Both the position numbers and the translations under genes were made by a program. Below, piece after piece: positions 8,509 through 12,252 of a DNA stretch of 21,393 nt; position 1 is the first letter of the stretch, and each line of letters starts with the position of its first letter. A model generated the notes under the pieces. That model searched no databases, had not been told where the DNA came from, and worked only from the letters and a program-made list of their open reading frames with translations. The DNA comes from a virus. Where the stretch lies: positions 1 to 21,393 of the IMG/VR virus record IMGVR_UViG_3300005602_000012. The stretch is one strand, 5' to 3'.

Positions 8509-9348
8509 TTAGCCTTGCGACAATGGTATAATAAACCGCATTGAGTACTCTGGTACAATCACAGAACCATGCGTCTCATCATAAATCATCCCCGTTTGGT
8601 TTTGACCGAAGATAGAACCATAGGTCAAACGCAATGAAGCACCTGTATCTGGATCATGCTCGTTTGCTGTCGGGAACGGTGACTGTTCTGGTAGCATCGG
8701 CATAGCGAGATACAGGGCCTCTCCGCCTAAAATACCACCGCATCTATGAGAGGGCAGTCCACTCACTTGCATGCCAGCTTGCAATGCATTATTTAAGTTT
8801 TGATTTTGACCACCAGCCCAGTTTAGAGCAGGGGTAATAGTGATGGTTACATCGCCACTACCATTGGAGGCTGCATTTGCCACAGCTCTAAATTGTGTTG
8901 GATTGGCGCTTGGAAAATGGCCAATCCATGTCAAGTAACGCATATTAGGCTTACCTGATACACCATCATTAAACTGGAATAAATCTCCAGCAAATACGGC
9001 ATTCGCATCACTGACACTTGCCCCACTAAATGTTAATTGTGTAACTGATTGTCCTGTAGGGTCATTAGTGCTAATCAATGTCAAAGTTTGTCCCAATACG
9101 CCAGTATTACCAGAAACGTGTATGGGCATTAAGTTGGATTGATAGTAATTGACTAAAGGTGTCCCGAAGTCACCGATTTCCCATGAGAGCGCGATGCTAT
9201 CATTTCTGTGCGGAACGAACTGATTTAGACCATTTCCTACAATACTTGGAACAACTGAATCAGGAAGATACACTTTCATGCCTTCAGCTACAGAGCCGTA
9301 GTTTTTGAAAAACATTACGGCCTGGGCGATTTGTTGGTCAATTCTGTT
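8509..9348 (-). CDS. major capsid (coat) protein, exon 2
   Basis: C-terminal 279 residues of the P22-type coat protein, beginning N-R-I-D-Q-Q after the intron's terminal G at 9349. A TTG at 9351 could be called as an independent start, but there is no ribosome binding site, and the frame upstream is closed by stops inside the intron. Typical segments include QAVMFFKNYGSVAEGMKVYL, GLNQFVPHRNDSIALSWEIG, DLFQFNDGVSGKPNMRYLTW and SMRFIIPLSQG at the end. Joined to exon 1 the protein has 440 residues, against 430 for P22 coat. It forms the T=7-type shell in that family. Confidence 0.85.
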   Translation of the reverse strand, partial: NRIDQQIAQAVMFFKNYGSVAEGMKVYLPDSVVPSIVGNGLNQFVPHRNDSIALSWEIGDFGTPLVNYYQSNLMPIHVSGNTGVLGQTLTLISTNDPTGQSVTQLTFSGASVSDANAVFAGDLFQFNDGVSGKPNMRYLTWIGHFPSANPTQFRAVANAASNGSGDVTITITPALNWAGGQNQNLNNALQAGMQVSGLPSHRCGGILGGEALYLAMPMLPEQSPFPTANEHDPDTGASLRLTYGSIFGQNQTGMIYDETHGSVIVPEYSMRFIIPLSQG

Positions 9349-9587
9349 CAAATGAGGTCGTTAATCTCAATCCGCCTTTCGGCTGCTTCTAGTCGCCTAG
9401 AAGTTCAGACTATATCTTCACCCTTTCGGGGCTCGGCGCTTCCACTCACTTGAGTGTACTCCCTTTCGGGATAGTCGTTGCACCTTCTGCTTTCGCAGCT
9501 TGGCTCAGGATTGTCTACTTGAGGTTTCCCCTGAGTTCACCGAGTTTCATCTGCCTATTTCTAAGCAGCGAGCCTACCATTTAAGCT
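9349..9587 (-). ncRNA. group I self-splicing intron (IA-type) in the coat gene
   Basis: All core helices are visible on the - strand. P1: TTAAGT at the exon end plus AGC pairs with GCTGCTTAG, with the U.G wobble at the splice site. P3: CTCGGT (9544-9539) with GCCGAG (9437-9432). P4: CTCAGG (9535-9530) with CCTGAG (9509-9504), the latter inside the Q-like AATCCTGAGCCAAG. P6 extension: CTGC-GAAA-GCAG. P7: GACTAT (9476-9471) with ATAGTC (9413-9408), inside the hallmark AAGATATAGTC. P7.1 (CCC-GAAA-GGG) and P7.2 (ACTC-AAGT-GAGT) mark subgroup IA. P8: CCCC-GAAA-GGGT. P9: CTTCTAG-GCGA-CTAGAAG. P9.1: GCC-GAAA-GGC. The intron ends in G at 9349. Splicing AGT to AAC keeps the coat frame exactly. There is no endonuclease gene inside. 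Confidence 0.93.
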
Positions 9588-10070
9588 ACTTAACGCCGTA
9601 CTACCATTTCCAAAATATCGATAAGGACCAGAAAACGTATTGGTGGTTCCATCTAACTGACTGACTACGCCTGAATCCCAGTTTAAGGCTATATTACCTT
9701 CTATTAACGCAGACAATTCAGCAATCGCACTCTTACCAAATACTCTCATATAATCCTCTTCACCTTTTTCTAAGTTGAAGATTCTTTGTTGAGCAGTTAC
9801 GGCAAAAGAAGTGTTGTTAGATTGGTCACAAGCAAGTGTTTGCACTCTTTGAACCGCTGGCTCAAATGATGCAACTAAACCTGCCGCAGTAGTAAAGCGT
9901 GGAGGCAAATCAAAGGTCACAGTAGAACCTAAGTTCGCTTGAATTTTATCAAAATCTTTGAATTTTGCATTTGCTGTTGCGATGTGACAGCATAAGTTTT
10001 GCAACAAAGCCAACCCTGAACGTTGATAGGTTTGGACCTGTTGGAGAATATTCGCTGGAAAAACTGCCAT
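9588..10070 (-). CDS. major capsid (coat) protein, exon 1
   Basis: N-terminal 161 residues of the coat protein, starting MAVFPANILQQVQTYQRSG with GGAG upstream. Family-like segments are FKDFDKIQANLGSTVTFDLP, FAVTAQQRIFNLEKGEEDYM and YRYFGNGSTALS, where the exon ends after the Ser codon AGT. Unspliced, the frame reads eight intron codons (SLNGRLAA) and stops at TAG, giving a 169-residue fragment that could not form a shell. The gene lies between scaffold and putative decoration genes, the usual P22-like order. Coat assignment is by similarity and position. Confidence 0.85.
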
Positions 10071-10123: not shown

Positions 10124-10831
10124 TCAAGCTCTATATTTTGCTTTTAATTCTGGCATCGATAACACGCTACTCGAATCCGTTCCGACGTTAGAAGAACGTT
10201 GCTGATTTAAAGGAGTATTCGTTTCTCGATGACCTGTCACACTTTCATTCTTTTTAATTGAGTCCGATAATCGGTTAAGTTCGTAGAGCGCCTCTTGTGG
10301 AAAGTCTCTAGCCGTTAACTCAATCTGGGCCAATTTAGAACGATTTTTGCTTAACTCATAAAGCACATCACTGGCATTTTCTAAATTCTCTGCAAGCATA
10401 TGTACCGTATTTGGAAAGCGTCTAAGCTCTAAGTCACCAGTCACTTTGTCAAAGTCATCATATTTCTGTTTTCCAACTTCAATCTTGTCGTAAAAATTCT
10501 TCACGATTCGCTTGGCAGCTTGCTCTTCGGCATTACTCTGAGCTTCTTGTATCCATTGGTCGCGCAACCGTTGTGCTTCTTCAGCCGCTAGTCGTCTAAA
10601 TCTTTCTTCATTAAATTCTGATGAAGACTCTTTATACACTGGTGCTGCTTGTGCCTCTTGCTGCATAGAGCGTTTATAGTTCTCTACCGCTCGATTGGCC
10701 GCTTCTTGTTTAGCTCGTCCAACGATTTCATTAACTTCAGATTGCCTCAACATCTTCTCTTGTGGAGTCGATGTTTCGCTGCTCGTCGGTGCAACATTAG
10801 TATCTGCACTTTGATTCAATACTTCTTCCAT
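10124..10831 (-). CDS. scaffolding protein
   Basis: A 235-residue, highly charged, Gln/Glu/Arg-rich, mostly helical protein placed directly upstream of the coat gene, as expected for a P22 gp8-type scaffold. The N-terminal 40 residues are Ser/Thr-rich and disordered-looking. Residues about 45-115 look like a long coiled coil (EERFRRLAAEEAQRLRDQW, AEEQAAKRIVKNFY). The C-terminus is polar and ends in a short basic segment (LSMPELKAKYRA), and in P22 a C-terminal helix-turn-helix binds coat. P22 scaffold has 303 residues, so this one is shorter. The ATG has AAGGA nine bases upstream. Confidence 0.75.
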   Translation of the reverse strand: MEEVLNQSADTNVAPTSSETSTPQEKMLRQSEVNEIVGRAKQEAANRAVENYKRSMQQEAQAAPVYKESSSEFNEERFRRLAAEEAQRLRDQWIQEAQSNAEEQAAKRIVKNFYDKIEVGKQKYDDFDKVTGDLELRRFPNTVHMLAENLENASDVLYELSKNRSKLAQIELTARDFPQEALYELNRLSDSIKKNESVTGHRETNTPLNQQRSSNVGTDSSSVLSMPELKAKYRA

Positions 10832-10973: not shown

Positions 10974-11002
10974 GTTGATAGAGTAGATATTCGTCTCATT
11001 GA

Positions 11003-11031
11003 TTGCAAAATTCTCTAAATGTTCTTATCAT
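11003..11031 (+). promoter_or_regulatory. sigma70-type promoter of the + strand regulatory cassette
   Basis: TTGCAA (11003-11008), a 17-base spacer, then TATCAT (11026-11031), a 5/6 match to the -10 consensus. It lies about 28 bases before the AlpA-like start codon. The -35 is self-complementary (TTGCAA), so it could also serve a leftward promoter for the scaffold transcript. The leftward -10 (TACTCT) is poor. Confidence 0.55.
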
Positions 11032-11058
11032 GTAGTAGTAAAATTATTAGGGAGTGAT

Positions 11059-11259
11059 ATGATTTCTATAATGGGGAAGGAATTTCTTACAGATAAAGAA
11101 GCCTCAGCAAGATATGGCTATTCACAAGCTTGGTTTATTAAAGCTCGGTCAGAAAAATATGGGCCTAAATATGTTCAAATGAAAGAGCATGGGAGAGTTT
11201 TGTACCCTCTAGAAGAAACCGATAAGTGGTTTAAAAACAAGATGGATGAAAAAGAATAA
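11059..11259 (+). CDS. AlpA/excisionase-like helix-turn-helix protein
   Basis: The frame is open from a TTG at 10999, but the real start is probably ATG at 11059, with GGGAG just upstream and after the promoter. The 66-residue product matches the small winged-helix family of AlpA and excisionases: FLTDKEASARYGYSQAWFIK forms helix-turn-helix, followed by a wing (HGRVLYPLEETDKWFKNK), typical of the helix-turn-helix type 17 domain. Such proteins bind DNA as prophage excision factors or transcription regulators. It leads a three-gene cassette on the strand opposite the late genes, so it could regulate that cassette or the divergent scaffold-coat operon. Confidence 0.75.
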   Translation: MISIMGKEFLTDKEASARYGYSQAWFIKARSEKYGPKYVQMKEHGRVLYPLEETDKWFKNKMDEKE

Positions 11260-11269
11260 GGAACAAGCA

Positions 11270-11695
11270 ATGCGCATAGACGAGCTACCAATAAGCGATG
11301 AAGTTATTAAAATTCTTATTAGAAAAGGCAAAATATTTGATGTTGAAGAATTATTAAAAAAGTCCAATAAGGAATTACTTGGAATACATGGGATTGGAAA
11401 ATCTCAATTGAAATATATCAAAAAAGCATTGTATTGGTTTATTAAATCTTCAGAAATCAAATTGCAAAAAGATAGGTTACTTTCTGAGATGCAAGCCATG
11501 TTTAAAGAATTCTCTATACCCTTAAAACATGAAATAAATGAATTACGCACAATATTGTTAGAACAATACAGGTTAATTCAAAGTATACAAATAGAAAAAC
11601 AACCAGAAGGAATAATGAAAATAATAAATGAAAAAATACCAGGATTTTCATCTACTATGTACGATATTTATAAAAAATTAGAAGAAAAAGAATGA
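11270..11695 (+). CDS. RNA polymerase alpha-CTD-like helix-hairpin-helix protein
   Basis: The frame also contains an ATG at 11246, but ATG at 11270 has AAGGA at a 7-base spacing and begins directly with the domain, giving 141 residues. Residues 2-54 follow the alpha C-terminal domain pattern: IDELPISDEVIKILIRKG, then VEELLKKSNKELLGIHGIGK and LKYIKKAL. The GIHGIGK turn is the helix-hairpin-helix. The helix that in E. coli alpha carries Arg265 and Asn268 reads SDEVIKIL here, so the classical UP-element contacts are missing. The remaining 85 residues are helical and charged, probably a coiled coil. It may bind DNA or compete with host alpha, but this is inference. Confidence 0.65.
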   Translation: MRIDELPISDEVIKILIRKGKIFDVEELLKKSNKELLGIHGIGKSQLKYIKKALYWFIKSSEIKLQKDRLLSEMQAMFKEFSIPLKHEINELRTILLEQYRLIQSIQIEKQPEGIMKIINEKIPGFSSTMYDIYKKLEEKE

Positions 11696-12252
11696 CAGAA
11701 TATGAATTTAAGCAAATGCTTGGAAAATATGCCGAATCTATTTTTATGGAGATTTGGGGGCCAATTGAAAGCAAAATATCATTACAAATACAAGATGTAG
11801 ATAAGTTGCTATCAGATTTTAGAGAAAAACTACAATCCATAGACCAAAGACAACGCCAACTTAGACGCGATTTTACTAAGTTAGATGATAAAATTAACAT
11901 ACAGCTAGATCACATGAGTGATGCAATAGAAAAACAAAAAGAACTTAACATCTCTCTTAGTGAGGAGATTCTAGAAGAAGTTAATGAAGATATTAAATTA
12001 GCTATTGAATACGGCAGAAAGATTGATGAACTCTATGAGAAAACATTGAAAATATCTAATGTAAGTCTTAAAGACTTCGATTCAGTAATACTTGAAGCAA
12101 AATCTGTTATTAAACATGAATGTGACCTAAGAATTATAGATATTCTTAATCTTGATAAGAATTTTAGAGAACTAGTGCGCCTTGCAGATAAAAGTTTGCG
12201 CGATCATCAGCTTTATAAAAATATAGAAGAACCAACTAAAATTATATTTTAA
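11692..12252 (+). CDS. coiled-coil protein of unknown function, 186 aa
   Basis: Joined to the alpha-CTD-like gene by a 4-base ATGA overlap, so the two are co-translated. The protein is charged and almost entirely helical. A strong coiled coil runs over about residues 25-85 (VDKLLSDFREKLQSIDQRQR, LRRDFTKLDDKINIQLDH). The C-terminal half has helices separated by short turns. There is no membrane segment or enzymatic motif. Its helical partner gene suggests the two proteins could form a hetero-coiled-coil, which is inference. It ends at a hairpin terminator. Confidence 0.65.
   Translation: MTEYEFKQMLGKYAESIFMEIWGPIESKISLQIQDVDKLLSDFREKLQSIDQRQRQLRRDFTKLDDKINIQLDHMSDAIEKQKELNISLSEEILEEVNEDIKLAIEYGRKIDELYEKTLKISNVSLKDFDSVILEAKSVIKHECDLRIIDILNLDKNFRELVRLADKSLRDHQLYKNIEEPTKIIF

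What the first reader, a model, noticed from the sequence alone, without database searches (positions are those of the whole stretch)
9349..9587. Compact 239-nt group I intron inside the major coat gene
Two head-gene fragments (169 and 280 codons as bare frames) are separated by sequence that folds into a full group IA core: P1, P3, P4, P6, P7, P7.1, P7.2, P8, P9 and P9.1, most capped by GAAA or GCGA loops. The P1 wobble and terminal G give unique boundaries, and joining AGT to AAC restores a 440-residue coat in frame. Most phage introns sit in DNA metabolism genes (polymerase, thymidylate synthase, ribonucleotide reductase), so a coat-gene intron without endonuclease is notable.
Basis: partly seen in the sequence, partly recalled or inferred. 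Interest (0 to 1): 0.88.

Follow-up and report, generated by a model that had tools for sequence, protein, structure and literature searches.

The report
Self-splicing intron in phage coat gene

Summary
The intron is real: Rfam RF00028 matches 9593-9386 (-) at 75 bits (gathering score 50), and across 17 relatives 98.2% of core pair cells form standard pairs, with 24 of 42 pairs changed on both sides. The stated boundaries are wrong. 80 IMG/VR contigs carry the same coat gene uninterrupted; against them the proposed junction (AGT|AAC, 239 nt, 440 aa) adds two residues and loses an invariant Tyr. Excising 9583-9339 (245 nt) is the best of all in-frame excisions and gives the family's 438-aa coat...TALSSYQQIAQ.... 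A second phage (L089) has the intron at the same site, and its P10 covaries with the exon (ACCA/UGGU to AUCA/UGAU). There is no ORF in the intron. The rarity argument is weak: capsid introns are published (LittleE, Tuc2009, crAss-like phages). In a motif-based sample, 28 of the 37 closest introns lie in major head genes of several unrelated families and 5 in tail sheath genes, with up to six introns in one gene. Splicing itself is inferred, not shown. The intron is a new member of a known kind; the capsid-gene habit of its lineage is the interesting part.

The parts
9584..10070 (-). Coat gene exon 1 (487 nt, codons 1-162 and the first base of codon 163)
   Evidence: Homology to 80 uninterrupted relatives; best in-frame junction
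9339..9583 (-).
   Evidence: Rfam RF00028 75 bits; junction enumeration; pair covariation; same site in L089
8509..9338 (-). Coat gene exon 2 (rest of codon 163 to stop); spliced product 438 aa
   Evidence: PHROG 283 major head protein on the spliced protein
9571..9587 (-). P1: exon AGCU (9587-9584) plus UA pairs with UAGGCU (9576-9571); U9584.G9574 wobble marks the 5' splice site
   Evidence: Read from the sequence; kept in L089
9551..9568 (-). P2 hairpin (CUGCUU/UAGGCAG); a stop codon of the exon 1 frame (TAG, 9563-9561) lies in it
   Evidence: Read from the sequence; compensating changes in L089; stop
9538..9544 (-). P3, 5' strand (pairs with 9438-9432)
   Evidence: 4 of 7 pairs with change on both sides
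9505..9534 (-). P4 (9534-9529 with 9510-9505) enclosing P5
   Evidence: Invariant in 17 sequences, so neutral as covariation evidence
9483..9503 (-). P6 and P6a, GAAA loop
9472..9476 (-). P7, 5' strand (guanosine-binding helix; pairs with 9412-9408)
   Evidence: 2 of 5 pairs with change on both sides
9443..9470 (-). P7.1 (9470-9461, GAAA loop) and P7.2 (9456-9443)
   Evidence: All 8 pairs have double changes
9432..9438 (-). P3, 3' strand
9421..9430 (-). P8, GAAA loop
   Evidence: Weakest helix in the alignment, 80% of cells paired
9408..9412 (-). P7, 3' strand
9386..9403 (-). P9, GCGA loop
   Evidence: 5 of 7 pairs with change on both sides
9353..9383 (-). P9.1 (9383-9374, GAAA loop) and P9.2 (9369-9353)
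   Evidence: Read from the sequence; P9.2 strands change together in L089 and L270
9335..9339 (-). Terminal intron G (9339) and the 3' exon ACCA (9338-9335) that pairs with guide UGGU (9579-9576) as P10
   Evidence: Covaries in L089: AUCA with UGAU
10124..10831 (-). Head scaffolding protein gene just upstream of the coat
   Evidence: PHROG 8865, E 1.6e-5

Best explanation
A 245-nt ORF-less group IA intron interrupts the P22-like coat gene of an uncultured phage. In the transcript, P1 holds exon sequence AGCU against the internal guide so that a U.G pair marks the 5' splice site (after base 9584). A guanosine bound in P7 attacks there; then the last intron base, G9339, takes its place, P10 holds the 3' exon (ACCA) on the guide, and the exons join inside the codon of invariant Tyr163 to give a 438-residue coat. 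Shown here: a conserved, covarying ribozyme fold, the empty-site junction and the P1/P10 match. Inferred from what is established for group I introns: the two splicing steps, and that splicing happens in the cell. The intron belongs to a lineage found at many sites in capsid and other virion genes of unrelated phages; how it moves without an endonuclease of its own is not known.
For: Rfam hit with all core elements. Pair counts on 17 relatives: 98.2% paired, 24 of 42 pairs with double changes, 122 double-changed cells against 32 +/- 4 in shuffles and at most 31 in slid controls. 80 intron-free relatives show what the joined gene should read, and the 245-nt excision is the best of all in-frame excisions and ends U|...G|. 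Ser162 and Tyr163 are invariant in 30 relatives. L089 has the intron at the same site with compensating P10 and P2 changes. The unspliced frame meets a stop 24 nt inside the intron. Both exons encode conserved coat sequence. An identical copy lies in a second record (L082).
Against: No RNA or protein data: splicing and its efficiency are not shown. P4 is invariant and so is silent; P8 pairs in only 80% of cells. P1, P2, P9.2 and P10 were read by eye from two to four sequences. The alignment that gave the pair counts was made from sequences picked for similarity to the window intron.
Confidence: 0.93

Rival explanations
1. One reading: the same intron spliced at AGT|AAC (9587-9349, 239 nt), giving a 440-residue coat with NRID at the junction.
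For: In frame, U|...G| form, and a P1-like pairing AAGU|AGC with GCUGCUU can be drawn.
Against: Adds two residues and removes invariant Tyr163 against all relatives; scores below 9583-9339; its P1 destroys P2 and is not kept in L089, where P2 and P10 are.
Confidence: 0.03
2. A degenerate intron or broken gene: the intron no longer splices and the coat is made as two pieces or not at all.
For: No expression data; the window is a metagenome fragment.
Against: All core helices intact with compensating changes; coat protein about 86% identical to relatives while the DNA is about 75% identical, i.e. under purifying selection in both exons; the intron is at the same site in a diverged phage.
Confidence: 0.03
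3. On history: the intron at this site is old in the clade and was lost many times, rather than acquired by transfer.
For: Same site in two phages of the clade.
Against: Only two intron-bearing lineages were seen against 80 uninterrupted contigs, and each groups with an intron-free one (window with L003, L089 with L036). The intron is 87% identical between window and L089 while the exons are 74% identical, although constraint on the RNA could explain part of that. A core 85% identical sits at another site of a coat only 21% identical (L270), which needs transfer at some point.
Confidence: 0.2

Closest known systems
Mycobacteriophage LittleE major capsid intron (PMC3706429)
   Same: Intron in a major capsid gene, U before the 5' site and G at the 3' end, intron-free relatives show the junction; splicing proven by RT-PCR and N-terminal sequencing
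   Different: 819 bp with a LAGLIDADG-like reading frame; the authors call it most likely group I; different capsid family and site
Mycobacteriophage BAKA tail-gene intron (PMC3706429)
   Same: 265-bp intron without endonuclease in a virion structural gene; splicing confirmed by RT-PCR
   Different: Minor tail gene, not the coat
Group I introns in MCP genes of crAss-like phages (PMC7886860)
   Same: Major capsid gene as target, several introns in one MCP gene (ORF in five pieces)
   Different: Those were found through endonuclease domains; different phages and capsid family
T4 td and Twort-type phage group IA introns (own knowledge; Twort matches)
   Same: IA architecture with P7.1/P7.2; several introns in one gene known from Twort
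   Different: td lies in thymidylate synthase and carries an endonuclease gene
Intron in the split major head gene of phage C72C1, OQ984150.1
   Same: Compact core next to a major head CDS in a deposited phage genome (84% identical to the L237 intron)
   Different: Not annotated as an intron; different capsid family

Membership tests
Group I intron (Rfam RF00028) | Covariance-model match above the curated cut-off | tested here: met
   75 bits against 50
Group I intron (Rfam RF00028) | Conserved core P3, P4, P6, P7, P8 with P7 forming a pseudoknot with P3 | tested here: met
   Pair counts with P7 written as a pseudoknot: P3, P4, P6 and P7 100% paired, P8 80%
Group I intron (Rfam RF00028) | U.G pair in P1 at the 5' splice site, G at the 3' end, P10 with the 3' exon | tested here: met
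   Sequence reading with corrected ends; P10 covaries in L089; junction enumeration
Group I intron (Rfam RF00028) | Self-splicing started by guanosine | not testable with these tools
   Needs in vitro transcription
Subgroup IA | P7.1/P7.2 between P7 and the 3' strand of P3 | tested here: met
   Both hairpins present and covarying; no subgroup-specific model was run
Mobile (homing) group I intron | Intron-encoded homing endonuclease | tested here: not met
   No ORF of 60 aa inside 9339-9583; no endonuclease family in the window ORFs scanned or by HNH_3 and GIY-YIG search of the record. The record is a fragment
P22-like coat protein | Profile match of the spliced product | tested here: met
   PHROG 283 major head protein, E 8e-10 on the 440-aa version; no Pfam hit; PDB Gene 5 protein only E 0.005; L270's coat matches Pfam P22_CoatProtein, E 1e-19
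P22-like coat protein | HK97-type fold with inserted domain | tested here: inconclusive
   AlphaFold model of an intact relative too poor, mean pLDDT 41

The most novel reading that the evidence does not exclude
The window intron belongs to a lineage of small ORF-less group I introns specialised on capsid (and other abundant virion) genes across unrelated phages, moving between different capsid genes and sites, perhaps by reverse splicing into abundant late mRNA or with endonucleases supplied in trans, and accumulating up to six copies in one gene.
Probability: 0.35. Interest if true: 0.72.

Novelty: new member of a known kind. Interest (0 to 1): 0.5.

Why it matters
The intron itself is a new case of a known kind. 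The pattern behind it matters more: the introns closest to it lie mainly in major head genes, and head-gene insertions fall at about 28 sites in seven protein families. Capsid genes that look broken in virome data may therefore often be intact, and gene callers report them as fragments (deposited phage C72C1 is an example). It also makes testable how introns without endonucleases spread, and why the most heavily expressed phage gene tolerates several of them.

Tried and rejected
tblastn of the spliced coat found nothing in 50,697 phage records, so no close cultured relative. The coat's hits in bacterial genomes are four MAG contigs from unrelated taxa, so no host is assigned. AlphaFold of an intact relative was discarded (pLDDT 41). 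Co-conversion of exon flanks between window and L089: no clear signal. The second motif, GTGAAGATATAGTC, is short and partly matches by chance, so only loci confirmed by model R1 were counted. HNH_3 hits in the L270 and L003 records are not beside a coat intron, so no trans-homing claim is made. Rarity of coat introns was rejected as an argument by the literature and by the host-gene tally. Assembly artefact rejected: the same 6.8 kb with the intron is in a second record, and a diverged copy sits at the same site in L089.

Full report
OBSERVATION. On the - strand a 169-codon frame and a 280-codon frame are separated by just over 200 bases. Rfam places RF00028 at 9593-9386 with 75 bits against a gathering score of 50 and E 1.1e-17; nothing else in the window passes. 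The 245-nt segment folds at -77.5 kcal/mol against -60.4 +/- 4.3 for shuffles.

BOUNDARIES. The product has 438 residues, as most relatives do. Ser162, Tyr163 and Gln165 are invariant in 30 relatives; the intron sits inside the Tyr163 codon. P1 is AGCU|UA with UAGGCU (U.G at the site), and the guide bases UGGU pair with the 3' exon ACCA (P10). In L089, which is 74% identical in coat DNA and has the intron at the same place, the exon reads AUCA and the guide UGAU, and P2 has compensating changes. In L270, at a different site, the guide AUGA-GCCU matches exons AGGU^UCAU. These P1, P2 and P10 pairings were read by eye from the sequences.

RIBOZYME. I aligned the core of 17 similar introns and counted pairs: 98.2% of 713 cells are paired, 24 of 42 pairs have changes on both sides, and 122 cells are double-changed (shuffles 32 +/- 4; slid controls 31 or fewer). 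P7, the guanosine site, covaries at two pairs; P4 never varies and is silent; P8 is weakest at 80%. A model built from these (R1) hits the window at 189 bits (the window was one of its sequences) and gives no hit in 33 intron-free coat loci. RF00028 over 49 records finds introns above the cut-off only in the records of L082, L089, L270 and L279.

CONTEXT. The window is a 21,393-base IMG/VR record with an Sf6-type small terminase, a large terminase, a P22-type portal and a scaffold gene on the same strand as the coat. The spliced coat matches PHROG 283, major head protein; L270's coat matches Pfam P22_CoatProtein at E 1e-19. No close cultured phage: coat none, portal 24% identical at best among the rows shown. 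The same 6.8 kb, intron included, is in a second record, L082. No endonuclease was found in the window and the intron has no ORF; the record is a fragment, so one elsewhere is not excluded.

RELATIVES OF THE INTRON. R1 confirmed introns in these; 223 hits of 50 bits or more were used. Host genes were labelled through blastp clusters whose representatives were scanned against PHROGs. Of 37 introns at 150 bits or more, 28 are in major head genes and 5 in tail sheath genes; two of the rest are in a tail fibre gene (L279) and a tail tube gene (L310). At 110-150 bits it is 21 of 41, at 80-110 only 6 of 47, at 50-80 it is 42 of 98, many of the last being one capsid family. So the habit is marked near the window intron and mixed further off, where endonuclease-bearing introns in polymerase, terminase and nrd genes occur. 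Head-gene insertions fall at about 28 sites in seven protein families. In a tree of the cores, the window and L089 copies (L280 is the L089 contig) pair with support 0.98, inside a clade (0.96) with introns in three different head-protein families. Several genes carry many introns: L248 six, L159 four, L371 four, L186 three, each above the Rfam cut-off with collinear exons between them.

CAVEATS. Some loci are near-duplicates. In 50,697 phage records the best matches of this intron lie mostly in DNA polymerase, helicase and similar genes or outside annotation. Phage C72C1, a deposited genome, has a related intron just after a 'major head protein' CDS, with a second 'major head protein' CDS downstream.

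LITERATURE. LittleE has a capsid intron with an endonuclease frame, shown to splice; the same paper cites one in the capsid gene of Tuc2009 and describes an endonuclease-free tail intron in BAKA (PMC3706429). Group I introns are reported in MCP genes of crAss-like phages, one MCP being in five pieces (PMC7886860). I found no paper on an endonuclease-free intron lineage concentrated in MCP genes, but the held library is partial.

VERDICT. A real intron with corrected ends and of a known kind, in a setting of moderate interest; the lineage-level pattern is the part worth pursuing.

Noticed in passing
L248 3637-5845: One major capsid gene split by six group I introns, each above the Rfam cut-off, with collinear exons between them.
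   Followed up: partly
L159, L371, L186, L216: Further capsid genes with three or four group I introns each.
   Followed up: partly
L270 11114-11370 (-): An intron with a core 85% identical to the window's, at another site of a distant P22-like coat gene (21% identical protein); P1 and P10 fit exons AGGT^TCAT.
   Followed up: yes
L402 2165-3366 (OQ984150.1, phage C72C1): A deposited phage genome has its major head protein annotated as two CDS with an unannotated group I-like intron between them.
   Followed up: partly
L279 2725-3309 (+): A 194-aa ORF with an HNH-like look lies on the opposite strand next to an intron-bearing tail fibre gene; no Pfam match.
   Followed up: no
window 10999-12252 (+): Three small genes on the strand opposite to the head genes, next to the scaffold gene; one has a sub-threshold match to the RNA polymerase alpha C-terminal domain.
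   Followed up: no
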